Origin: Dissulfurispira thermophila
GTDB taxonomy: Bacteria; Nitrospirota; Thermodesulfovibrionia; Thermodesulfovibrionales; Dissulfurispiraceae
DNA length: 64,000 nucleotides
Direction of reading: 5' to 3'
NCBI RefSeq assembly: GCF_014701235.1
Contig: NZ_AP022873.1
Location: 806,001-870,000, forward strand
The translations under genes and the position numbers were made by a program. Shown one piece after another: positions 18,932 to 43,583 of the stretch (position 1 is the first letter of the stretch; each line of letters opens with the position of its first letter). The notes beneath the pieces were generated by a model that saw only the letters and a list, made by a program, of their open reading frames with translations, ran no database searches and had not been told where the DNA came from.

Positions 18932-19421
18932 AACTGTTAAGTTTAAGCATCTTAATACCTGATTGTCAAACAAACAAAGAATTCGTAAAATTGCCGATAG
19001 AAATAGAAAACTATTTCTGTGAGTTTAGATGCCAAACACTGCTCAAAGCCTTTAAAAAGTGTTAATTCAAGTGTATATGAGAAGACTATAAATGTATTAC
19101 TCAACAAGTATCCACTAATAGGTGGTGACGGATACAAGATAAATGTAGCTACAAGTGCCAAGTTTAAAGTCTTTTTCGCAGTGTCTGCCATCTAATTAAA
19201 AGTGTTTCCCACTACCACTTAATTTCTATCGGCAAGTTCGAGAGAATTTACAGAAAATTAACGATTATTAACCGCAAATTTACTGTGTTTAGTAGTAGGA
19301 TTTAATGTAGTAAAAACATTGAAAAGTCTGTGAAGGGGGTGGGAATGAACTAAATTGGGCAAATTAGTTAATGGAATCGAGGAAATATCTTTAGAGTTTA
19401 ATTGAATAAGGAGGTAGTGAA
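18932..19421. other. intergenic region upstream of the nitrite/nitrate reductase operon
   Basis: About 490 bp between divergent argS and the octaheme reductase gene. It holds a 14-bp inverted repeat pair (18991-19004 and 19222-19235), a 58-codon plus-strand frame (19019-19195) overlapping a 79-codon minus-strand frame, neither with a ribosome binding site or family, and an AT-rich leader. AAGGAGG precedes the reductase ATG. No clear FNR box or sigma54 promoter was found. Confidence 0.5.
18991..19235. repeat. 14-bp inverted repeat pair flanking about 217 bp
   Basis: TTGCCGATAGAAAT at 18991-19004 is the exact reverse complement of ATTTCTATCGGCAA at 19222-19235. The enclosed segment is AT-rich and has short open frames on both strands. 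It could be a small non-autonomous mobile element or a paired operator. No target-site duplication is obvious. Confidence 0.45.
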
Positions 19422-21101
19422 ATGGGTAAAAGGATGTATGTATTGTTAGTGGCTGTTCTGGCGCTCGCCATTGTAGGTGGAATTTACCACACAAGTGCAG
19501 ATGCCCAGTACAAAGCCGACACAAAGAAGGCAGCAGTCGAAAAGCCTGTAAAGGTTGAGACATGCTACGGATGCCATGCACCTGTCCAGGAGTTGCATAA
19601 GATGGGTAAACATGCGAAGGTTAATTGTTCAAGCTGTCATAAGGGACTTGATAAACATGTCAAGTCTCCCGGCCCTGACACAAGGCCTGTAACGGATAAG
19701 TCATGGCAGGCATGCGGACAGTGCCATAAGGAGCAGATGGAGAGCTTTATGAAGGAGGCATATCATAGGCCTGCAAGGGATGAAAAATCCCAGCTTACAA
19801 ACAGATCGCCCAATCCTTTCTGGGATAAGCTTATGATGGGACACGGCTTTACAAAGGAGCATAATCTTACAAGAAGCCACAAGTGGATGCTCATCGACCA
19901 TCTTGTTGTTGACAGGGCCTACGGTGGGAGATTCCAGCCAAAGAACGGATGGAATTATCTGTTTGAAGGCGGCAAGGCATGGGATGTCCTGATGGACAAA
20001 TATCCTGATGCAAAAGAGCATAAAGCATTCATTCCCCAGAGCGCACCAGCAGCAAACCCTGTCTGTCTGAACTGTAAAACACAGGATCATATCCTCGACT
20101 GGGCATATATGGGAGACCCTGACAAGGGTGCAAAGTGGTCGAGGACATCAAAGGTATTTGAGTTTGCAAAGGACCTCAATCACGCACTCAACTGCTATAT
20201 GTGTCATGACCCGCATGCTGCAAAGCCGAGAATTGTCAGAGACGGACTAATAGATGCGCTCACAAGGCCTGACGGCGATACTCTCTGGCATAAGGATCCG
20301 AAAAGGACAGGAATCAAGGTCATTGATATGGGTGTGAGAGGCTATACAAGGAAGATAGCACTTCTGGACAAATATGACACAAGGCTCCAGTGCGGACAGT
20401 GTCATGTGGAGTATAACTGCAACCCTGGTTATGACCCAACAAATCCTGATACGTCAAAATATACAGTGACAATGGCAGACAGAAGGACAAACCATTTTCC
20501 ATATAAGGATGTCTTTGAACTCTATGACCATTATGTAAATAAGGTTCACTTCCTCGACTTCAAACACGCACTAACCGGTGGTCTCCTCTGGAAGGCGCAG
20601 CATCCAGAAGCAGAATCGTACTACAATTCAAAACATGCAAAGGCAGGAGTCGGCTGTGACGGCTGCCACACCCCAAAGGTAAAGGACAAAAAGACGGGGA
20701 AGACTTATACATCCCACTTTGCAGTAACACCAAAGGCTCAGCTCAAGGATACATGCTTGAAATGCCATTCCAAATGGACAGAAGAACAGGCAAAATATGC
20801 CATTGACTCTATTAAGGCATACACAAAGGGCAAGATGAGGAAGGCTGAGTTCTGGCTTTCAGCCTTAATAGACAAGATTGTTGAGGCAAAGAAGGCAGGC
20901 GTGGATGCAGAAACCATCAAGAAGGCACAGGACCAGCACTTGAGGGCGCATATCCTCTGGGAATACTGGACTGCCGAGAACTCCGACGGCTTCCACAATC
21001 CCGAGATGGCAAGGGAGTCTCTTACAAGGTCTGTGGATGAATCACAGAAGGGTATAAAGATACTTACCGACGCAATGGCAGCAAAAACAGCCGCAAAGTA
21101 A
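19422..21101 (+). CDS. octaheme cytochrome c nitrite reductase (TvNiR/ONR type)
   Basis: Periplasmic enzyme predicted to reduce nitrite to ammonium. A signal peptide (about 1-28) precedes 531 mature residues. Eight heme sites: CxxCH at 48-52, 69-73 and 98-102 in an N-terminal domain absent from pentaheme NrfA, then the catalytic CLNCK at 215-219, then CxxCH at 258-262, 324-328, 412-416 and 445-449. HVEYNC places Tyr331 two residues before Cys333, as in the Tyr-Cys thioether pair of the Thioalkalivibrio octaheme enzyme. KAQHPEAE (His394) matches the NrfA catalytic histidine region. Strong AAGGAGG site. First gene of the nap operon. Confidence 0.9.
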   Translation: MGKRMYVLLVAVLALAIVGGIYHTSADAQYKADTKKAAVEKPVKVETCYGCHAPVQELHKMGKHAKVNCSSCHKGLDKHVKSPGPDTRPVTDKSWQACGQCHKEQMESFMKEAYHRPARDEKSQLTNRSPNPFWDKLMMGHGFTKEHNLTRSHKWMLIDHLVVDRAYGGRFQPKNGWNYLFEGGKAWDVLMDKYPDAKEHKAFIPQSAPAANPVCLNCKTQDHILDWAYMGDPDKGAKWSRTSKVFEFAKDLNHALNCYMCHDPHAAKPRIVRDGLIDALTRPDGDTLWHKDPKRTGIKVIDMGVRGYTRKIALLDKYDTRLQCGQCHVEYNCNPGYDPTNPDTSKYTVTMADRRTNHFPYKDVFELYDHYVNKVHFLDFKHALTGGLLWKAQHPEAESYYNSKHAKAGVGCDGCHTPKVKDKKTGKTYTSHFAVTPKAQLKDTCLKCHSKWTEEQAKYAIDSIKAYTKGKMRKAEFWLSALIDKIVEAKKAGVDAETIKKAQDQHLRAHILWEYWTAENSDGFHNPEMARESLTRSVDESQKGIKILTDAMAAKTAAK

Positions 21102-21111
21102 TTAAGATTCA

Positions 21112-21138
21112 GGGGCGGGGCATGGTGCCCGCCCCTTT
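21112..21138 (+). terminator. G/C hairpin between the octaheme reductase and napM-like genes
   Basis: GGGGCGGG (21112-21119) and CCCGCCCC (21128-21135) form a perfect 8-bp stem with an 8-base loop followed by TTTGATTT. Likely a partial terminator or 3' stabiliser that would raise reductase mRNA relative to the downstream nap genes. Confidence 0.65.
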
Positions 21139-21169
21139 GATTTGCTAATTGTAAAAATAAGGAGGCTCT

Positions 21170-21541
21170 ATGGAAAGGTTGCCCATGAAATTATGCTTAA
21201 TCGTATTTTCCCTTATACTTGTCCTGCCGCTTACCGTTAATGCAAAGGATAAAAAACACATAAAGACAGCAGAGGATCAGGAGTGTTATGAATGCCACGG
21301 CACTCAGATGCAGGTATGGCAGGATGGCAAGCATGGACTCATGAATGTGAAGTGTGTGGTATGTCATGGCTCAACAGATAAAAACTTTGTTTCAAAGCCT
21401 GACATTTATAAATGCAGGGGATGCCATGGTGATAAGGTCAGCGATGTGGAGAAAAAACTCCCTTTAAAATTGAGGGATTGCTTTCTCTGCCATGACCATC
21501 ACTCTGTAACGCCGAAATTCCATACAAAAGGGGGTAAATAA
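21170..21541 (+). CDS. napM: tetraheme cytochrome c, NapM-like
   Basis: 123 residues with a signal peptide (cleavage near NAKD at about 25) and four CxxCH sites at 39-43, 62-66, 82-86 and 104-108. It directly precedes napA, the position and heme number of NapM in the napCMADGH operon of Desulfovibrio desulfuricans, so it is probably the electron donor to NapA or to the octaheme enzyme. AAGGAGG precedes ATG 21170. The NapM name rests on position and heme count; a generic tetraheme cytochrome is the alternative. Confidence 0.8.
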   Translation: MERLPMKLCLIVFSLILVLPLTVNAKDKKHIKTAEDQECYECHGTQMQVWQDGKHGLMNVKCVVCHGSTDKNFVSKPDIYKCRGCHGDKVSDVEKKLPLKLRDCFLCHDHHSVTPKFHTKGGK

Positions 21542-21542
21542 G

Positions 21543-23846
21543 ATGGAGATTACGAGAAGACAACTCCTCAAATATTCTGCAGCCCTTGCAGCAGCCTCTG
21601 CAATTGGTCTTGAACTGCCTTTGCCAAAAGATCTCGAGGCTGCACATGTGGAGAAATGGATAAAAGGAGTATGCAGATACTGTGGTGCGGGCTGTGGTGT
21701 TTATGTTGGTGTTGACAAGGGAAAGATAGTTGCTGTTCAAGGAGACAAGGACAACTGGAATAAGGGATTTCTCTGTGTTAAGGGGTATTATCTGCCGCCT
21801 ATACTCTATGCAGCAGATAGAGCAAAGTATCCTATGCTAAAAAAGGGCGATAAATTTGTCCGCATCTCATGGAAAGAGGCAATGGACTTAATGACAGAGA
21901 AATTTGCCGATTCAATAAAAAAGCATGGAGTCCATTCAGTAGCGTTCTATGGCTCTGGACAGGCATACACAGAAGAATCTTATTTTATGAATAAGCTCTT
22001 CAAAGGTGGTCTTGGCACGAACAATATCGACGGAAATCCAAGACTCTGCATGGCGTCTGCAGCAGTGGGTTATGTTTCCAGTTTTGGTAAGGATGAGCCA
22101 ATGGGTGCATATGATGATATTTATCATTCTGATTGCTTCTTTATCATCGGCTCAAACATGGCAGAGTGCCATCCTGTTATATTCAGGCTCATAAATGAGA
22201 GGAAGCAGAAGGGCAAAGATGTGAAGATAATAATGGTTGACCCTCGAAAGACTCTCTCGGCAAGGATTGCTGACCTTCATATGAGCTTTATTCCAGGCAC
22301 TGACCTTGTGATTCTACACGCCATGGCGCATGTGATTGTCAAAGAGGGACTTTACAGCAAAGATTATGTGAATAACCATGTGGTATTTAAGACCATCAAG
22401 GATGATAAGCCTGCAAAGGTCTCTTTTGAGGAATATGTAAAGTTCCTCGAAGAATATACCCCTGAGATGGCAGAAAAGATATCTCATTGTCCTAAAGATG
22501 ACATTATCAAGGCAGCAAGGTGGTTTGCACAGTCAAAGGCAACAATGAGCTTCTGGACAATGGGGCTTAATCAAAGGACAAGGGGTGTATGGGCAAATAA
22601 TCTTGTGCATAATCTACATCTCCTTACAGGTCAGATATGCAGGCCCGGGGCAACATCTTTTTCACTTACCGGACAGCCCAATGCATGTGGTGGCATAAGG
22701 GATACAGGGCTTTTGAGTCATCTATTGCCATACGGCAGGCTTGTGGCAAATGAAAAGGACAGAAAGGATATGGAGAAGTTTTGGGGTGTTCCAGAGGGAA
22801 GGATTCATCCTAAGCCAGGACCGACAGCAGTAGATATATTCAGGGCATTTAATAAAGGCGAGATAAAATGCCTGTGGATAGCCTGTACAAACCCCGGACA
22901 GAGTCTTCCAAACGTGGGACCTTATAGAAAAGGGATGGAATCAAAGGATACATTTCTTGTTGTATCTGAGGCATACCATCCTACCAGGACATCAGAGCTT
23001 GCTGACCTCGTACTTCCAGCAGCACTCTGGGTTGAAAAAGACGGCACATATGGACAGTCAGAGAGGAGGTATCAGTATCTTGAAAAGGCTGTGAATCCTC
23101 CAGCAGAGGCAAGACCAGATTTAGATGTGATGATTGAGTTCAGCCATAAGCTCTTTGCAAAACTTGGCAGGGCTGATGAGGCAAAAAGACTCTTCAATTT
23201 CAAAAACTCTGAAGATGTATGGAATGAGATAAGGCAATGCTCAAAGGGCACTGCCTATGACTTTATGGGGATGACAAGGGCAAGACTGAAAAAGGCACAC
23301 GGCATTCAGTGGCCATGCCCCACTGAAGACCATCCAGGGACAGTGAGAAGATATACCTCCAGATACGGAGATGTCCTCGTAAAGAAATTTGACCCTCACG
23401 CAACGGATGTCTCATTTTATGGTGCAAAGGCTGATGGTAATAAAGCTGCTGTATGGCTCAGACCCTATAAAGGACCAGCAGAGCCACCTGATGCAGAGTA
23501 TCCATACATATTGACCACAGGCAGACAGATAGAGCACTGGCATACAGGGACAATGACATTAAAGGTGCCCGAGTTGAAAAGGTCAGCGCCAGATGCCTTT
23601 GTTGAGATTAATCCAAGAGATGCACAGAAACTTGGTATCAAGAGTAGAGATAAGGTAAAGATTACATCAAGGAGGGGTTCTATTGTCCTTGAGGCTAAGG
23701 TTGTAGATGTACCGAGGGATGGCCTTGTCTTTGTGCCAATGCACTATCCTGAGAGGTTAATCAATCTTCTCACAACCGATGCCTATGATGCCATGTCAAA
23801 ACAGCCTGAATTCAAGATCTGTGCTGTAAAGATAGAGAAGGCGTAA
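21543..23846 (+). CDS. napA: periplasmic nitrate reductase catalytic subunit NapA
   Basis: Molybdenum bis-MGD enzyme reducing nitrate to nitrite. The 767 residues start with a Tat signal (TRRQLLKYSAALAAAS). The [4Fe-4S] ligands are C44, C47, C51 and C78, with K80 of the electron path. The Mo-ligand cysteine is C169 in NPRLCMAS, which favours NapA over formate dehydrogenase (Sec/Cys in a different context) and over Asp-ligated Nar. The C-terminal MGD-binding domain includes TTGRQIEHWHTGTMT. The ATG is one base beyond the napM stop (TAAGATG). No NapB or NapC is encoded nearby, as in monomeric Nap systems. Confidence 0.93.
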   Translation: MEITRRQLLKYSAALAAASAIGLELPLPKDLEAAHVEKWIKGVCRYCGAGCGVYVGVDKGKIVAVQGDKDNWNKGFLCVKGYYLPPILYAADRAKYPMLKKGDKFVRISWKEAMDLMTEKFADSIKKHGVHSVAFYGSGQAYTEESYFMNKLFKGGLGTNNIDGNPRLCMASAAVGYVSSFGKDEPMGAYDDIYHSDCFFIIGSNMAECHPVIFRLINERKQKGKDVKIIMVDPRKTLSARIADLHMSFIPGTDLVILHAMAHVIVKEGLYSKDYVNNHVVFKTIKDDKPAKVSFEEYVKFLEEYTPEMAEKISHCPKDDIIKAARWFAQSKATMSFWTMGLNQRTRGVWANNLVHNLHLLTGQICRPGATSFSLTGQPNACGGIRDTGLLSHLLPYGRLVANEKDRKDMEKFWGVPEGRIHPKPGPTAVDIFRAFNKGEIKCLWIACTNPGQSLPNVGPYRKGMESKDTFLVVSEAYHPTRTSELADLVLPAALWVEKDGTYGQSERRYQYLEKAVNPPAEARPDLDVMIEFSHKLFAKLGRADEAKRLFNFKNSEDVWNEIRQCSKGTAYDFMGMTRARLKKAHGIQWPCPTEDHPGTVRRYTSRYGDVLVKKFDPHATDVSFYGAKADGNKAAVWLRPYKGPAEPPDAEYPYILTTGRQIEHWHTGTMTLKVPELKRSAPDAFVEINPRDAQKLGIKSRDKVKITSRRGSIVLEAKVVDVPRDGLVFVPMHYPERLINLLTTDAYDAMSKQPEFKICAVKIEKA

Positions 23847-24073
23847 TGGCTGTTGCAAGCGTGATAGTGGAAGTGGAAGAAGGAGGAGGCGAGGCTGTTT
23901 TAAACAGCCTCGCCAGTATCGATAATATTAGTGTTTATGGTATTAAGGATAACAAGATCGTGACTGTTATAGAAGGAGAGAGCATGCAGGTTATAGACAA
24001 TACTATTAAAGAGTTATATAGCATAGAGAGAATATTGGGCGTCTATCCTGTCTATGCGGGGGATTATGAGTAA
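23846..24073 (+). CDS. napD: NapD-like chaperone for NapA maturation
   Basis: 75 residues with a ferredoxin-like beta-alpha-beta pattern (SVIVEVEEGGGEAVLNSLASI...KIVTVIEGES...LYSIERILGVYPVYA). NapD binds the NapA Tat signal and holds export until cofactor insertion. Start overlaps the napA stop (TAATG). Assigned from size, pattern and position. Confidence 0.85.
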   Translation: MAVASVIVEVEEGGGEAVLNSLASIDNISVYGIKDNKIVTVIEGESMQVIDNTIKELYSIERILGVYPVYAGDYE

Positions 24074-24542
24074 AAAACCGCTAAGGCCTCCCGGTGCCTC
24101 CAAAGAGGTCGATTTTATTTCAAGCTGTATAAGGTGCAGCAAGTGTGCACAGGTCTGTCCATATAAATCAATAAAGATAGCAAGCCTCTTTGATGGCATC
24201 ACAATTATGGGAACCCCTGTGATAAAGGCAAGGGATATTCCCTGTTATCTATGCATGAAGTGCCCTCCTGTCTGTCCCTCGGGAGCGCTTAACAGAAAAC
24301 TGAGGAATAAAAAGGATGTGAGGATGGGCACAGCAAGGATAAACAAAAAAGAATGCCTTGCATGGCAGGGGACACTTTGCAGAAGCTGTTATCAGAGTTG
24401 TCCTATCTTTGATGAGGCAATAAAGATGGACAACGAACTTAGACCTGTTGTGGATGAAAAAAAGTGTGTTGGCTGCGGCATATGCGAAAATGTATGCCCT
24501 GTTGAACCAGCAGCAATAGTAGTAGTGACAGGTGGCAGGTAA
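24066..24542 (+). CDS. napG: NapG-like ferredoxin with four [4Fe-4S] motifs
   Basis: 158 residues from ATG 24066 (GGGGG just upstream; overlaps the napD end). Four cysteine groups are visible: CIRCSKCAQVCP, CYLCMKCPPVCP, CLAWQG-x-LCRSCYQSCP and CVGCGICENVCP. Classical NapG is Tat-exported and passes quinol electrons via NapH. Here no twin-arginine or hydrophobic signal precedes the first cluster, so this protein appears cytoplasmic or would need to ride with a partner. MauM/NapG-type ferredoxin is otherwise a good fit. Confidence 0.85.
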   Translation: MSKKPLRPPGASKEVDFISSCIRCSKCAQVCPYKSIKIASLFDGITIMGTPVIKARDIPCYLCMKCPPVCPSGALNRKLRNKKDVRMGTARINKKECLAWQGTLCRSCYQSCPIFDEAIKMDNELRPVVDEKKCVGCGICENVCPVEPAAIVVVTGGR

Positions 24543-25336
24543 TGAAGATTAAGGTATTAAGGCGAATAATACAGGCTTTATCAATACTATTAATAATCGC
24601 AATCCCGATATTGAATAAAAAGGGAATAAGTATCCTTGTGGGAAGCCTTTATTCTCTTTCTGTTGATGGTTTATGGATAACGGATCCGTTGAGCGGCTTT
24701 CAGGTTATTCTATCAACATTGTCAGCAGACAGCACCCTTTTAATATCAATGCTCATTCCTGTTATTCTTGCCTTAATCTTCGGGAGGGTATTCTGTAGCT
24801 GGATTTGTCCACAGAATACAATCTCAGAAATTTCTGATTATTTATCAAGAAAAATATCATTTAAAAGGGTTATAAATCTATCACCGCGGTCATTGCCGAG
24901 ATATATAATCCTTGTAGTCTCGCTCATATTGGTGCCAATAATTGGATTTCCTGTTGCAAATCTCATATCCGCACCCGGAATAATATCTGTTCAGATTTCA
25001 AAATATATCTATGAAGGAACTGTGGGATTAGAGGTGGGACTTATAGGCACAATTATTATTTCAGAGGTGTTTCTGTTTAGGAGGCTCTGGTGCAATTACA
25101 TCTGCCCTGTTGGGAGTTTCTTAGGCATATTCAGGCTTAAAAGAACAATGAAGGTTGTTTATAGAGAAGATGCAGAACATTTATGTGGCAAATGCATGGA
25201 ATGTGTTAAGGCATGTCAGCTCAGTTTAAATCCAATGGGAGGAAAGATATACCCATTATGTCATAATTGTGGTGACTGTATTGCTGCCTGCGAAGAGATA
25301 AAGGACAAAGGCAAGCCGCTTTCGTTCAAGTTTTAG
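24542..25336 (+). CDS. napH: NapH-like membrane polyferredoxin
   Basis: 264 residues with four to five membrane segments. Two CxxxCP motifs (CSWICPQN, CNYICPVG) sit near the membrane face, followed by two C-terminal [4Fe-4S] motifs (CGKCMECVKAC, CHNCGDCIAAC). NapH oxidises quinol or transfers electrons with NapG. TAATG overlap with napG. Last gene of the operon; ends only three bases from the convergent response-regulator gene. Confidence 0.88.
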   Translation: MKIKVLRRIIQALSILLIIAIPILNKKGISILVGSLYSLSVDGLWITDPLSGFQVILSTLSADSTLLISMLIPVILALIFGRVFCSWICPQNTISEISDYLSRKISFKRVINLSPRSLPRYIILVVSLILVPIIGFPVANLISAPGIISVQISKYIYEGTVGLEVGLIGTIIISEVFLFRRLWCNYICPVGSFLGIFRLKRTMKVVYREDAEHLCGKCMECVKACQLSLNPMGGKIYPLCHNCGDCIAACEEIKDKGKPLSFKF

Positions 25337-25339
25337 GCG

Positions 25340-26038
25340 CTATTCTGGCTTGAATTTATACCCTATCCCAGAAACAGTAATTATGTATTCAGGCTCAGAG
25401 GGATTATCCTCTATTTTTTGTCTCAGATGCTGGATGTGGACATCTATGACTCTACTCCACGAATATATCTTTGTTTCCTTCCAGAGATGTTTTTTTATCT
25501 CATCTCTACTCAGCACAGATCCTCTGTGAAAAACAAGGAGGCACAGGAGATCATATTCCTTCGGTGTCAGGATTATTTCCTTGTTTTTGACTTTAACAAT
25601 CCTCTTTTTATAATCAATATGCAGTTTTCCTATGGTTATTTGTTCTTCTTCTACTGGTTTTGCCCTTCTCAGACACACTTTTATTCGTGCAATTAACTCA
25701 AGTGTTTCGAATGGTTTTACAATATAATCATCAGCACCACTTTCGAGTCCTATAACTTTATCTGAAATCTTATCCCTTGCAGTAAGCATTATTATCGGTA
25801 ATGTAGGATACTGTTTTCTCAAGGTGCGACATATCTCAACTCCATCACCATCAGGAAGCATGAGGTCGAGGATCAAAAGATTTGGTTTTTTTTCAGAAAT
25901 AGCCTTTTGTCCCTCTGTCCATGATTCTGCTGTAACTACATTGTATTTATGGAACTCAAGATTTGCCTTTAAGACCTTCAGAATATCGGTGTCATCATCT
26001 ATTATCAGTATTGTATGATTTTTATTTTCTTTTAACAT
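25340..26038 (-). CDS. OmpR-family response regulator
   Basis: 232 residues. Receiver domain with acidic pair DDD near 14-16, phospho-acceptor Asp in LLILDLMLPDGDG and the switch lysine in VKPFET, then a winged-helix DNA-binding domain (LTPKEYDLLCLL...VIDVHIQHLRQKI...GIGYKF). The gene start overlaps the end of the heme-domain kinase gene by seven bases, so the two are a cognate pair. The convergent position next to napH suggests control of the nitrate/nitrite operon, which is inference. Confidence 0.92.
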   Translation of the reverse strand: MLKENKNHTILIIDDDTDILKVLKANLEFHKYNVVTAESWTEGQKAISEKKPNLLILDLMLPDGDGVEICRTLRKQYPTLPIIMLTARDKISDKVIGLESGADDYIVKPFETLELIARIKVCLRRAKPVEEEQITIGKLHIDYKKRIVKVKNKEIILTPKEYDLLCLLVFHRGSVLSRDEIKKHLWKETKIYSWSRVIDVHIQHLRQKIEDNPSEPEYIITVSGIGYKFKPE

Positions 26039-27786
26039 GGTGTTGCTATCTTTTTTGCTATCTCCAGTAGTTTGTGTTGTTCTGTCCTATTGAAGCCTTC
26101 TTGTGAAAAGCCTTCATGATGTCCTCTTGTATAAGGTAGTTTGAAATAAAAACAGCTTCCATTTTTGCCGTCGCTGTTTACGCCAATTATACCATTATGC
26201 GCCTCTATTATGCTTTTACATATAGCAAGACCGAGCCCTGTCCCTTCTTTGTTACCATTTCTGTAGAATTTTTCAAATATCTTTTCGTGTTCTGATGGAT
26301 GGATACCAGGGCCTTCATCCCATATTTCGACAATTGCATAATCTTTTTCAGGATATGCAAAGATAAGTATCTCGGATTCTTCTGGAGCGAACTTTATGGC
26401 ATTAGACAGGAGATTGATAAGAACTTGTTTTATCCTATCTTCATCAATGCTGACGATAATATTATTTGGTATATTTGCATTGAAAAATATGCCCTTTTTA
26501 TCAGCATTGATCTGTAGATAGGCAAGTACCTCTGCAATAAGATAAGAAAGATTTATATCGCTGAATCGCAATTCAGAAGCCCCCATTTCTATTCTCTCGA
26601 TATCCAGCATGGTGTTGACCATGCGTACCAATCTCTCGGAATTTTTCTTTATCACATCAAAAAATATATGAAGGTCATCGAGGGCTGATTCTTCATGATG
26701 GGATTTGAGGTATGAAGAGAGTTTTGCAGATATATAATCCATTGCACCTTTAATGGATGTTAGAGGCGTCCTGAGTTCATGGGATGCCCTTGCTATAAAA
26801 TCAGATTTTTTTATGTTCGCCTCATTGAGAAGGCGATTGGTTTCGATTAATTTCCTGTTTGTCTCTTCAAGTCCTCTTGTTGCATCTTTTATTTTATTAT
26901 TCAGACAGGTATGATAATCTGTGAGAGTGCCTGCCATCTGTGAAAATGCATTGCAGAGGTCTTCAAACTCATCTCCTGTCTTTAGTCTTTTTGATGGAAA
27001 ATATTTACCTTCTGAAAATTCATCGATTGCTGATTTAAGCCTTTTCATCGGTGTCATTACAATCTTTCTCAGCATAAAGAACATGGCAGATATAAGAGCA
27101 AGGACAGTAATAATAGCAGCAAGTAACATACTTTGTCTGTTTGAAGCAATTTCTGCAAATGTTTTATCCATGGGGATTGTGATGCTTATAGCGCCCCTGA
27201 CATCGCCAAGTTTATAACCCTGTTTTGCATGGCATTGAAGGCATGCCTCTTCAACATAAAGCGGTGATATATATCTAAGGTATCTGGAGTTATCTATTTT
27301 TTCTATTGAGATAAGCTCTTTTATAGAAGCTTTTTCAAATTGATTGAGTGCATTTCTTTCAAAGTCATCAGGTGCGTTTCCCGGGTTTATTAGTTTCAAG
27401 CTCGTTATATGAAACCAATAGAGTCCTTTGTCTTTTGCATACTTAGATAGTTCTTTTGTGACCATTGCCGGAGTTTCTCTTACATATCGCTTGCCCTGCA
27501 CATCCCTGACCTCTGAATCTTTTATATAAGGGGTAGGCTTTATCCACGGGAGCTTTTCTACGAATATCCCTCCGTGGTCTGCTATCCATTTTCTTGTGAT
27601 TACTATCTGCTTGAATATGGCACGGGCTTCATTCTCTACCTGTCCCATAATGAGTCTTTCCTGACGATGAGCAATAATATAGAAGGAAATGCCAAGGGCT
27701 AATATTAGAGTAACGCTGCATCCTATGATTAATTTAGTACTGAGGCTTATCCTCATCTCCTTTATTTTCTTTAATAAATCAGACAT
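26032..27786 (-). CDS. histidine kinase with DUF3365 c-type heme sensor domain
   Basis: 584 residues from ATG 27786. Membrane segment near 19-40, then a periplasmic DUF3365/Tll0287-like domain with a CLQCH heme motif at about 182-186, a second membrane segment (near 215-235), a HAMP-like linker, a short coiled coil (TRGLEETNRKLIETNRLL), HisKA (SHELRTPL) and HATPase (N box LSNAIKFAP, G boxes DEGPGI and GTGLGLA). Heme-bearing sensors of this class can respond to redox state or small gaseous ligands. Pairs with the downstream OmpR-type regulator. Confidence 0.9.
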   Translation of the reverse strand: MSDLLKKIKEMRISLSTKLIIGCSVTLILALGISFYIIAHRQERLIMGQVENEARAIFKQIVITRKWIADHGGIFVEKLPWIKPTPYIKDSEVRDVQGKRYVRETPAMVTKELSKYAKDKGLYWFHITSLKLINPGNAPDDFERNALNQFEKASIKELISIEKIDNSRYLRYISPLYVEEACLQCHAKQGYKLGDVRGAISITIPMDKTFAEIASNRQSMLLAAIITVLALISAMFFMLRKIVMTPMKRLKSAIDEFSEGKYFPSKRLKTGDEFEDLCNAFSQMAGTLTDYHTCLNNKIKDATRGLEETNRKLIETNRLLNEANIKKSDFIARASHELRTPLTSIKGAMDYISAKLSSYLKSHHEESALDDLHIFFDVIKKNSERLVRMVNTMLDIERIEMGASELRFSDINLSYLIAEVLAYLQINADKKGIFFNANIPNNIIVSIDEDRIKQVLINLLSNAIKFAPEESEILIFAYPEKDYAIVEIWDEGPGIHPSEHEKIFEKFYRNGNKEGTGLGLAICKSIIEAHNGIIGVNSDGKNGSCFYFKLPYTRGHHEGFSQEGFNRTEQHKLLEIAKKIATPC

Positions 27787-27813
27787 ATTCAATTATAATC
27801 AATTTTGATAAAT

Positions 27814-29277
27814 TTAGGATATGATAAAGATTATAGTTCTGTCTTTACCCAGTTCTTTTGCTTTATATAGAGCTGTATCAGCATTTTTTATCAGGTCGTT
27901 AATGTTTTTGCCATCATCAGGAAAAGATGCTATCCCTATGCTTAAAGTTATTGCAGGGTGGGGGAATTTTTTAAATCTGTAAGAAAAAGATTCTTTTATA
28001 TTGTTTCGTATTCTTTCTGTGACTATGAATGCCTCCTCTTTGTGAGTCTGGGGCATGAGGATTGCAAATTCTTCTCCGCCGAATCTACAGATGACATCAT
28101 TTGCCCTCAGACACTCCCTTGCAATGCGAGACAGTTCTTTCAGTACACTGTCCCCTGCAAGATGTCCTTCTGTATCATTGAGGAGTTTAAAATCGTCAAT
28201 ATCAAGCATTGCCAGCGAAAAGACAAGACTATATCGTTCAGAACGGTGTATCTCTTCTGTAAAACGTTCTTGAAAGTATCTTCTGTTGAATAGACCTGTT
28301 AAATGGTCTGTGATAGAGAGTTCTTTCATCTGTTCTGCAAGATTGTAATAATTAGATACTTTTAGAGAAATCGAAGCATATGATGCAAAATGATTAAGGA
28401 GGTTGAAATCTCGCTCTGTAAATTCCTCTCCTGTTGTCTTGTCTGTAACATTTAGAACACCCATCGTTTCAGATGCAAACTTCAAGGGTACGCTTACAAA
28501 AGAACCAGTCTTATAATGAGATTTTGGTTTTATGCGTGGACCTTCTATTTTGCTGATATCTTTTACAAGTAAAGGGCTTCCATTTTTAAATACATTTCTT
28601 GCAATTCCTTCACCTGACTTTATTCTTATTCCATTTGCAAGCCATCTGTTGATGCCTTTTACAGCTTTTATTAATAAGCTGTCTCCCTCTGGCAGCATTA
28701 ATGAACCCTTTTCAGCGGTCAAGAGTTCAGTGGCAGTATCTACAATTGACTCATAGAGCAAATCAGTATTATGCAACTGGGGTGTTAGTTTTTTTACAGA
28801 TGTGTTTAATATGTACATGTCATTAATGCATTCGTCGTATGCATTATGAAGTATGTTTGCCTTAAACACAAGGCAGACAAGTTTACAGAACTCTAATATG
28901 CTGTACGCCTCTTCCCGCGATATAACAGAGTTGTATATGACTATTACGCCGTGAGTGCAGTCCTTGCATGCAATAGGGAATATGTGCATTGAATTAACGC
29001 TGTCAGGCAGACCGAGCCGAGATATTTCTGCTATATCATTTGTAGATGTCGGCTTCAAGCCTTCAATGGCGCGGGAGATCAGATAGTTGTTATCTTCCAT
29101 ACAGATAGATGCTATATTGTCTCTTAGTCTACCCGATGATATAACAGTCCTAAATAATTTCTTCTCTTTGACCATTATGGAGACAGTGTCTATATGAAAC
29201 AGAAATAACAATGCGTTAACGATTAATGAATGGACATCATTTGCAGGGGCGGGTAACTGCATATTATAAAAGTACAT
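27814..29277 (-). CDS. GAF-GGDEF diguanylate cyclase
   Basis: 487 residues: an N-terminal region of unknown type, a GAF domain (about 165-310) and a GGDEF domain (about 330-487). The active site reads FGGEEF with an inhibitory RxxD (RAND) five residues upstream, so it should make cyclic di-GMP under product inhibition. It overlaps the preceding gene by 14 bp and is followed 27 bp later by the heme-domain kinase, forming one transcription unit. Input signal unknown. Confidence 0.9.
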   Translation of the reverse strand: MYFYNMQLPAPANDVHSLIVNALLFLFHIDTVSIMVKEKKLFRTVISSGRLRDNIASICMEDNNYLISRAIEGLKPTSTNDIAEISRLGLPDSVNSMHIFPIACKDCTHGVIVIYNSVISREEAYSILEFCKLVCLVFKANILHNAYDECINDMYILNTSVKKLTPQLHNTDLLYESIVDTATELLTAEKGSLMLPEGDSLLIKAVKGINRWLANGIRIKSGEGIARNVFKNGSPLLVKDISKIEGPRIKPKSHYKTGSFVSVPLKFASETMGVLNVTDKTTGEEFTERDFNLLNHFASYASISLKVSNYYNLAEQMKELSITDHLTGLFNRRYFQERFTEEIHRSERYSLVFSLAMLDIDDFKLLNDTEGHLAGDSVLKELSRIARECLRANDVICRFGGEEFAILMPQTHKEEAFIVTERIRNNIKESFSYRFKKFPHPAITLSIGIASFPDDGKNINDLIKNADTALYKAKELGKDRTIIFIIS

Positions 29278-42581: not shown

Positions 42582-43583
42582 TTACGGGTGTGTGAGGGTG
42601 TGGATAAAAGGCATGATGGCTCTTAATTCATCAGGAGAGACATGGGAATGCCACTTGCCTGTTAGTTTTGCTATCAAGACAATGCCAAAGAATACTGCAA
42701 TTACTGTAAAAATAAAAACCTCTGGTCTCAATGCCTTTTTATTTAAAATGGCTGGATTAAGGGCATCTTTAGCAGGGCAATGGCTCACGCATATGAGGCA
42801 TCCTGTGCATTCAGGTGAATGTATGGTTTCTTTTTTATCAACAGATAGAAGTGAAGGGCAATTTTTTGCACATAACCCACACTTAATGCATTTGTCTTTG
42901 TTTCTTCTTATCTTTATGGGGCTTAATATGCTTAATAACCCGAGCAATCCGCCATAAGGGCAGAGATACCTGCACCAGAAGTTTTTATAAAGGAGTGATA
43001 AAACAAAGAGAATGCTCAGTGTTATCTTTGTTGTAAGAGACATCTCTGTAAAGAACTTTAACAATTTTATATCTGAGACCTTCCAGTATGGCGTGTTCAG
43101 AAAAATCCCAATCTCAGAAGGTGACATCTTTATGACAATTACATAGAGGAAAAAAGCCATTAAAGCATATTTCAGAGACCTCAGGGGATAATCTATATAT
43201 TTTGGAATGACAAAATTTTTCCTGAATATTTTTTTACCCACCTTCCATATCACCTCAGACAATGTCCCTACAGGACATATCCATCCACAGAAGGATTTCT
43301 TCAGGATAATTACAAGTAATAATGCACTAATAAATATTACGAGTGCAGCAGGATGTATTGGGTCAAATATGCCTTCTGTTATCCACTGCTTTAATGCCAT
43401 TAATGCACCGATTGGCATGAACCCTTCTACTGATGGAGGACGGGTGACAGATGGTATTAGTCCATTTTCTAATGCTTGTGTAAAAAGATAGAATTTATAG
43501 CCCGAATATATGACTACTAAAAATATTGCCCACTGAATGGTATATCTAATTTTTCTGATATATGAACGGTTTATTTTTACCAT
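42582..43583 (-). CDS. 4Fe-4S membrane polyferredoxin (NapH/YccM-like)
   Basis: 333 residues with about six membrane segments, two membrane-face CxxxCP motifs (CGWICPVG, CRYLCPYG) and two [4Fe-4S] motifs (CIKCGLCAKNCP, CTGCLICVSHCP). A C-terminal membrane helix ends with a His-containing tail (WHSHVSPDE). Likely moves electrons between the quinone pool and a periplasmic or regulatory acceptor. Stand-alone, with no reductase neighbour, so the partner is unknown. Confidence 0.85.
   Translation of the reverse strand: MVKINRSYIRKIRYTIQWAIFLVVIYSGYKFYLFTQALENGLIPSVTRPPSVEGFMPIGALMALKQWITEGIFDPIHPAALVIFISALLLVIILKKSFCGWICPVGTLSEVIWKVGKKIFRKNFVIPKYIDYPLRSLKYALMAFFLYVIVIKMSPSEIGIFLNTPYWKVSDIKLLKFFTEMSLTTKITLSILFVLSLLYKNFWCRYLCPYGGLLGLLSILSPIKIRRNKDKCIKCGLCAKNCPSLLSVDKKETIHSPECTGCLICVSHCPAKDALNPAILNKKALRPEVFIFTVIAVFFGIVLIAKLTGKWHSHVSPDELRAIMPFIHTLTHP

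What the first reader, a model, noticed from the sequence alone, without database searches (positions are those of the whole stretch)
19422..25336. Nitrate-to-ammonium in one operon: TvNiR-type octaheme nitrite reductase leading napM-A-D-G-H
Seen: eight heme motifs with one catalytic CxxCK and a Tyr-x-Cys (331/333) like the thioether-linked pair of the Thioalkalivibrio enzyme, directly followed by a tetraheme cytochrome and napADGH. Known: Nap normally pairs with NapB/NapC; Desulfovibrio uses napCMADGH. Inference: here an octaheme enzyme takes the place of napC, channelling nitrite straight to ammonium.
Basis: partly seen in the sequence, partly recalled or inferred. Interest (0 to 1): 0.72.

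Follow-up and report, generated by a model that had tools for sequence, protein, structure and literature searches.

The report
Nitrate-to-ammonium operon with shared switch
This bacterium carries, in one gene cluster, an eight-heme enzyme that should turn nitrite into ammonium and the genes that make nitrite from nitrate; the pairing is known elsewhere, but here it sits behind an apparently undescribed DNA switch that related bacteria keep even when they swap the nitrite enzyme for another.

Summary
Window 19422-25336 encodes an octaheme nitrite reductase (ONR; hemes HHHKHHHH, all six TvNiR active-site residues present), then tetraheme NapM, NapA, NapD, NapG and NapH, tightly packed. Nap-ONR modules are already known (Trichlorobacter, Desulfurivibrio), and so is napMADGH without NapC, so the enzyme set is a variant of a known kind. 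In related genomes the same slot holds NrfH-NrfA or an HAO-type octaheme cytochrome, which supports its role as the nitrite-reduction slot.

The new part is regulatory. A 37-bp quadruple direct repeat (TTWAC-N6-TTWAC-N5-TTWAC-N6-TTTAC) lies before ONR, with a -10 hexamer 12 bp further on. Over 200 genomes of the class it occurs 107 times (reversed control 4); 78 of the 107 precede ONR, HAO-type, NrfH or nap genes, and only one site is in the window's genome. It co-occurs with the OmpR-type regulator encoded next to the operon (54 of 62 operator genomes), whose partner kinase carries a c-heme sensor domain of a family reported to bind NO. Binding, signal and co-transcription remain untested.

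The parts
19247..19283 (+). Operator: four direct repeats TTTAC-N6-TTAAC-N5-TTAAC-N6-TTTAC, 138 bp before the ONR start codon
   Evidence: the only match at <=1 mismatch in the 2.37-Mb genome
19296..19301 (+). Probable -10 hexamer TAGGAT, 12 bp after the last repeat; TANNNT at this exact offset in 71 of 90 assigned operator sites
19422..21101 (+). Octaheme nitrite reductase (ONR), 559 aa, hemes HHHKHHHH, R165 K219 Y331 C333 Q393 H394
21111..21136 (+). GC-rich hairpin right after the ONR stop codon (stabiliser, partial terminator or attenuator; role unknown)
21170..21541 (+). NapM-type tetraheme periplasmic cytochrome, 123 aa
   Evidence: named by heme count and position
21543..23846 (+). NapA catalytic subunit, 767 aa, Tat signal, Fe-S cysteines C44 C47 C51 C78 and Mo-ligand position C169
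   Evidence: ligand roles recalled
23846..24073 (+). NapD chaperone, 75 aa
   Evidence: PF03927
24054..24542 (+). NapG ferredoxin, 162 aa, no Tat signal in the frame
24542..25336 (+). NapH membrane polyferredoxin, 264 aa
25340..26038 (-). OmpR/PhoB-type response regulator, proposed to bind the operator
26032..27792 (-). Membrane histidine kinase with periplasmic c-heme Tll0287-like (sCache_heme) sensor domain, CLQCH
   Evidence: (PF11845 E 1.1e-24)
27814..29277 (-). GAF-GGDEF protein downstream of the kinase; possible extra output of the same system
   Evidence: 67% identity neighbour in L005

Best explanation
This is a nitrate-ammonification operon under one dedicated switch. NapA (with NapD as chaperone) reduces nitrate to nitrite in the periplasm, and the ONR reduces nitrite to ammonium at its Lys-ligated heme. 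NapGH takes electrons from menaquinol and the tetraheme NapM relays them to NapA and probably ONR (inferred; none of the electron path was tested). A membrane histidine kinase with a periplasmic c-heme Cache domain senses a nitrogen oxide, most likely NO formed from nitrite (inferred from the published biochemistry of the domain family), and phosphorylates the PhoB-like regulator encoded beside it. The regulator binds four direct repeats that end 12 bp before the -10 hexamer, standing in for the -35 element, and turns on ONR and, by read-through past a hairpin, napMADGH. In relatives the switch is kept while the nitrite reductase (ONR, NrfH-NrfA or HAO-type) and the form of NapA are exchanged.
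For: Enzyme: PDB match and residues, tree, HHHKHHHH in 108 of 131 full-length relatives; the other 23 show seven motifs by the strict pattern, and of four of these looked at three have a longer-spaced eighth site while L078 showed seven. Slot exchange: HAO-type in L151, NrfH-NrfA in L152, NrfH-NrfA plus ONR in L030. No NapB, and no second full PF02335 protein, in the genome. Operator: 107 sites in 62 of 200 class genomes against 4 for the reversed pattern; 78 of 107 precede ONR 26, HAO-type 24, nap 22 or NrfH 6; 36 of the 62 operator genomes have no ONR match. -10 hexamer at one exact offset in 71 of 90 assigned sites, 0-6 at 17 other offsets. Regulator: 54 of 62 operator genomes carry it and 54 of 67 regulator genomes carry the operator, odds ratio 65. 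Kinase: 13 of 13 close relatives keep CxxCH; a member of the domain family binds NO (PMC12889525).
Against: No expression, binding or activity data. The pattern was learned from ONR-upstream sequences, so (36 of 41) is not an independent test, and the co-occurrence statistics ignore shared ancestry. 8 operator genomes lack the regulator at E<=1e-75 and 13 regulator genomes lack the operator; 30 of 56 ONR genomes have no operator. 25 of 107 sites precede other genes and 4 lie at contig ends. 8 of 36 codirectional ONR-nap loci show no operator at <=2 mismatches (one had no upstream sequence). The window hairpin between ONR and NapM scored as terminator-like, so ONR and nap may not share all transcripts. 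NapM and NapGH as electron path are inferred; a decaheme with a NapC-like N-terminus sits elsewhere in the genome and could serve instead.
Confidence: 0.75

Rival explanations
1. It is simply another member of the published Nap-ONR module (Trichlorobacter type), with ordinary local regulation; the repeat is a promoter feature of no special regulon.
For: Nap next to ONR is published; ONR identity about 51% to 8rv0; Geobacter loci L044, L045 and L047 hold nap and ONR together.
Against: The repeat also precedes NrfH, HAO-type and nap genes in genomes without ONR, keeps a fixed -10 offset and co-occurs with one regulator. Geobacter loci have nap first and ONR last, a NapA about 45-47% identical, no NapM found and no operator at <=1 mismatch.
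Confidence: 0.15
2. The octaheme protein serves as the electron entry (NapC-like) or relay for NapA rather than as a nitrite reductase.
For: It occupies the position of napC in Desulfovibrio napCMADGH (PMC5701242).
Against: All six TvNiR active-site residues are kept (133 of 133 rows; Cys 132 of 133); NrfA or an HAO-type enzyme fills the same slot in relatives.
Confidence: 0.03
3. Nitrite made by this Nap is mainly handled by the HAO-family octaheme cytochrome at 1041 kb, and ONR is a detoxification or sulfite enzyme.
For: The genome has an 8-heme, 417-aa PF13447 protein; TvNiR also reduces sulfite (PMC8840924 passage); HAO-type genes carry the operator in relatives.
Against: In this genome the operator is only before ONR, and ONR is the gene clustered with nap.
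Confidence: 0.08
4. A different regulator (Fnr/Crp, NarL or sigma-54 type) binds the repeat, and the neighbouring two-component system is a bystander.
For: The binding match rests on co-occurrence only.
Against: Repeats of 11-10-11 bp fit PhoB-like regulators (recalled); the regulator scores best with PhoB/OmpR-type models and is often adjacent to operator sites (compare places).
Confidence: 0.12

Closest known systems
Nap-TaNiR module of Trichlorobacter ammonificans (Sorokin et al. 2023; paper not held, abstract recalled; described in PMC11972089 and PMC12142623 passages)
   Same: Periplasmic Nap genes next to an octaheme ammonifying nitrite reductase; NapGH proposed as quinol-side donor (recalled).
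   Different: There ONR follows nap; here ONR leads, NapM is present, NapA is of the Desulfovibrio short type (recalled), and a heme-kinase system and repeat operator flank the operon. In the Geobacter loci examined no NapM and no operator were found.
Desulfovibrio napCMADGH, and napMADGH of Thermosulfurimonas and Deferribacter (PMC5701242, PMC4911364, PMC6896113; passages)
   Same: Same M-A-D-G-H order; Deferribacter has napMADGH beside an HAO gene.
   Different: Their nitrite reductase is NrfA, unresolved or HAO-type; none of the passages seen reports an ONR leading the operon.
Thioalkalivibrio octaheme nitrite reductase (PDB 2ot4 and others)
   Same: 52% identity over 508 residues, all tested active-site residues, 3+1+4 heme order.
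   Different: This one leads a nap operon; oligomeric state untested.
PhoB-type operators (tandem direct repeats of 11 bp; recalled)
   Same: Repeat spacing and placement just upstream of the -10 hexamer.
   Different: Repeat unit TTTAC/TTAAC, and linkage to nitrate and nitrite reductase genes.
sCache_heme (DUF3365/Tll0287) sensor domains (preprint PMC12889525; abstract, section 12, passages)
   Same: Pfam PF11845 match and CxxCH in a histidine kinase.
   Different: In a search of that paper the words nitrate, nitrite and operon do not occur; a link to ammonification is added here.

Membership tests
Octaheme nitrite reductase (ONR) | Heme order three CxxCH, one CxxCK, four CxxCH (PMC10716430) | tested here: met
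Octaheme nitrite reductase (ONR) | Catalytic His between sixth and seventh heme sites, plus Arg, Lys, Tyr, Cys, Gln of TvNiR | tested here: met
   H394, R165, K219, Y331, C333, Q393; residue roles recalled
Octaheme nitrite reductase (ONR) | Phylogenetic place among ONRs, apart from NrfA | tested here: met
   (one NrfA row only, on a very long branch; no HAO row)
Octaheme nitrite reductase (ONR) | Reduces nitrite to ammonium; hexamer | not testable with these tools
   Needs protein
Hydroxylamine oxidoreductase (HAO) | All-CxxCH octaheme of the PF13447 type | tested here: not met
   CxxCK present; Pfam scan lists PF02335, not PF13447; no HAO chain listed at E<=0.01
Pentaheme NrfA | Five hemes | tested here: not met
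   Eight hemes; 32% identity to L152 NrfA
Nap-ONR ammonification module | nap genes and ONR adjacent, no pentaheme NrfA | tested here: met
Nap-ONR ammonification module | NapAB heterodimer | tested here: not met
   No NapB in the genome; NapM instead
napCMADGH cluster | NapC-type membrane cytochrome in the cluster | tested here: not met
   only a decaheme with a NapC-like N-terminus elsewhere
PhoB/OmpR-type regulon | Winged-helix response regulator (Trans_reg_C) | tested here: met
   PF00072 and PF00486
PhoB/OmpR-type regulon | Regulator binds the direct repeats | not testable with these tools
   Co-occurrence only
sCache_heme histidine kinase | Tll0287-like domain with CxxCH | tested here: met
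   PF11845 E 1.1e-24; CLQCH
sCache_heme histidine kinase | Binds NO | not testable with these tools
   Reported for a family member (PMC12889525, section 12 read)

The most novel reading that the evidence does not exclude
A single, apparently undescribed regulon governs nitrate ammonification in the window's class of Nitrospirota and in some MAGs labelled Deltaproteobacteria: a periplasmic c-heme (NO-sensing) kinase and a PhoB-like regulator act on a quadruple TTTAC/TTAAC repeat that replaces the -35 element. The switch stays fixed while the nitrite reductase behind it is exchanged among ONR, NrfH-NrfA and HAO-type cytochromes and NapA among at least three forms, one of them 1111 aa long.
Probability: 0.7. 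Interest if true: 0.7.

Novelty: new variant of a known kind. Interest (0 to 1): 0.57.

Why it matters
Whether nitrate ends as ammonium or as N2 depends on which nitrite reductase a cell switches on. A short operator that marks ONR, NrfH-NrfA, HAO-type and nap promoters alike gives a sequence tag for ammonification genes, including HAO-type cytochromes whose role has been argued over, and it names the likely sensor. It turns 'is this octaheme cytochrome a nitrite reductase?' into a regulon question that can be tested with one protein and one 37-bp site.

Tried and rejected
HAO assignment: rejected (CxxCK, Pfam and PDB matches). ONR as NapC substitute: rejected on residues and slot exchange. 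Promoter scan with sigma-70 consensus: uninformative, 14 found against 13.9 expected. Window hairpin as a strong fold: only z -1.92, so no function is claimed. Weak PF03264 matches in the own genome: one is a 94-101-aa two-heme ORF, one a decaheme, one a multiheme protein; none is a plain NapC. NapA matches below about 42% identity mostly carry an in-frame TGA or lack the N-terminal part and look like formate dehydrogenases; they were not counted as Nap. Rows dropped: 4 of 135 ONR rows shorter than 480 aa (131 of 135 used), near-duplicates of the same contig, and tree rows reduced to 111. Motif counts use mononucleotide shuffles only. Structure prediction was not run: solved homologues exist.

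Literature: searches (10 of 10 used) listed no paper on this operator or on an ONR-led napMADGH in Nitrospirota as far as titles, abstract starts and the passages I opened show; subscription papers are not held.
Full report
What is there. The window lies in a single-contig 2.37-Mb genome. Its nearest named relatives by ONR are Nitrospirae MAGs (L003, 90% identity), so it is taken to be a Nitrospirota bacterium, probably of the Thermodesulfovibrionia (inference from labels such as L019 and L027). ORFs in order on the + strand are ONR, NapM, NapA, NapD, NapG and NapH with gaps of 68 and 1 bp and then overlaps; on the - strand, convergent, lie a response regulator, a histidine kinase and a GAF-GGDEF protein. 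Families: PF02335 for ONR; NapA, NapG and NapH best among their NCBIfam relatives though below the equivalog cut-offs; NapD by Pfam; the kinase with PF11845 (Tll0287-like) and CLQCH.

The octaheme enzyme. phmmer finds the eight-heme nitrite reductases at E about 2e-167 and 8rv0 (which I take, from recall, to be the Trichlorobacter enzyme TaNiR; the call gives no organism) at 2.8e-155; NrfA follows at about 3e-25 and no HAO is listed at E<=0.01. Identity is 51.8% over 508 residues to TvNiR and 50.8% over 486 to 8rv0; 32.2% over 397 to a pentaheme NrfA. TvNiR residues R131, K188, Y303, C305, Q360 and H361 (roles recalled) map to R165, K219, Y331, C333, Q393 and H394 and are the same in 133 of 133 aligned rows, except C305 in 132. 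Of 131 full-length relatives 108 show HHHKHHHH; 23 show seven motifs by the strict pattern, of which four were inspected: three have a longer-spaced last site and L078 showed only seven. A tree of 111 rows puts the window protein among ONRs with Nitrospirota neighbours; the rooting NrfA branch is very long, so only the position inside ONRs is used.

Neighbourhoods. Of 80 named loci, 9 have ONR with NapA of the window's kind (type A), 11 with a long NapA (type B), 4 with a 923-aa NapA (type C) and 4 with more distant NapA (three Geobacter, one Deferribacteraceae), and 52 have no NapA hit by this screen, some because the contig ends. In 200 genomes of the class ONR occurs in 56; in the 55 other than the window's own the counts are 3, 20, 5 and 0, with 27 none. 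The named and class sets overlap. NapA at 76% identity or more occurs in 7 of 200: four (window, G022, G165, G107) have ONR in front; G180 has an HAO-type octaheme protein there (L151); G123 has NrfH and NrfA (L152); G179 is cut by a contig end. L030 has NrfH, NrfA, ONR, NapM and NapA in a row. On the tree the window-type arrangement needs at least three changes, so it was gained or lost more than once.

The operator. The ONR upstream region carries four direct repeats at 19247-19283. The two-repeat core was seen upstream of 36 of 41 ONR loci that have a nap partner or the regulator nearby (mean 3.7 of 41 in shuffles, maximum 10) and 10 of 66 others; this set suggested the pattern and is not an independent test. 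In 2.0 Mb of fetched loci, 66 hits with at most one mismatch in the 26-bp core occur, against 1 in 0.83 Mb of shuffled sequence. The full 37-bp pattern, searched in 200 whole genomes with at most one mismatch, gives 107 sites in 62 genomes; the reversed pattern gives 4. All 107 were fetched and read: nearest same-strand gene within 900 bp is ONR 26, HAO-type 24, nap (NapA, the one-heme gene before long NapA, or NapD) 22, NrfH 6, other 25, contig end 4. Over the 90 assigned sites of all loci TANNNT begins exactly 12 bp after the last repeat in 71, against 0-6 at 17 other offsets; 16 of 26 'other' sites have it too. So the repeat stands where a -35 element would, as in PhoB-type promoters (recalled).

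The regulator. The response regulator (E<=1e-75) is in 67 of 200 genomes, the operator in 62, both in 54; Fisher odds ratio 65, p 1e-27, without correction for ancestry. ONR itself is a weaker companion of the operator (26 of 62; odds ratio 2.6). 13 of 13 kinase relatives of at least 45% identity and 400 aa keep CxxCH in the N-terminal part. A 2026 preprint (PMC12889525; abstract, section 12 and passages seen) reports that this domain family carries covalent heme c and that a member from a signalling protein releases NO slowly, like known NO sensors. That the window's kinase senses NO is inference.

Transcription. In 36 codirectional ONR-nap loci an operator (at most 2 mismatches) lies before ONR in 28 and between ONR and nap in none; the two distinct divergent loci (L007, L012) have operators for both sides. 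This favours one transcript from the ONR promoter. Against a simple operon, a GC hairpin follows the ONR stop codon in the window (21111-21136) and in 30 of 33 type A and B loci (at least 6 G-C pairs, window included), and also in 45 of 64 loci without nap; the window's hairpin fold is only z -1.92.

Electron path. No NapB exists in the genome and no plain NapC/NrfH; a decaheme with a NapC-like N-terminus lies at 653.6 kb. NapGH as quinol-side donor and NapM as relay follow published proposals for related systems and are inferred. NapG has no Tat signal in the window, and none was seen in L026, L040 and L096, while the type B NapG proteins listed have a twin-arginine start; I recall the same absence noted for Desulfovibrio.

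Known or new. The pairing of Nap with an octaheme nitrite reductase is published for Trichlorobacter (PMC11972089 passages; original not held) and Desulfurivibrio (PMC12142623 passages); napMADGH without NapC for Thermosulfurimonas and Deferribacter (PMC4911364, PMC6896113 passages). 'Candidatus Sulfobium', a Nitrospirota relative, was reported with NapAB, NapGH and NrfAH (PMC5812927 passages). A 2026 review says the role of NapM is unclear (PMC13223375 passage). I saw no report of an ONR-led napMADGH in Nitrospirota nor of the operator in ten searches of the held library. The enzyme set is therefore a variant of a known kind; the regulon is the new claim.

Noticed in passing
L013:10531-13866 and 19 other class loci: ONR clusters with a 1111-aa NapA that has several large inserts but keeps all Fe-S and Mo-ligand cysteines, plus a 163-aa one-heme protein without a Pfam family.
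   Followed up: partly
L005:8001-8705 (same contig as L099): A truncated second ONR copy lies directly upstream of the full ONR.
   Followed up: no
Window genome G000:C1:1041.4-1042.6 kb (L001): A second octaheme cytochrome, 417 aa, all CxxCH, PF13447; it has no operator in front in this genome.
   Followed up: partly
L231, L233, L245: The operator precedes small secreted-looking proteins with repeated CDPCDYN motifs; function unknown.
   Followed up: no
L253; L235 and L236: Operator sites in front of a sigma-factor-like gene and of about 985-aa ATPase-type regulators (judged by eye), suggesting a wider network.
   Followed up: no
L030:5485 and 7864: NrfH-NrfA and ONR stand side by side, each behind its own operator copy.
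   Followed up: partly
window 42582-43583 (-): A further membrane polyferredoxin resembling NapH/NosR, away from the nap operon (judged by eye from the ORF).
   Followed up: no
window 21111-21136: GC hairpin immediately after the ONR stop codon, present in relatives with or without nap genes downstream.
   Followed up: partly
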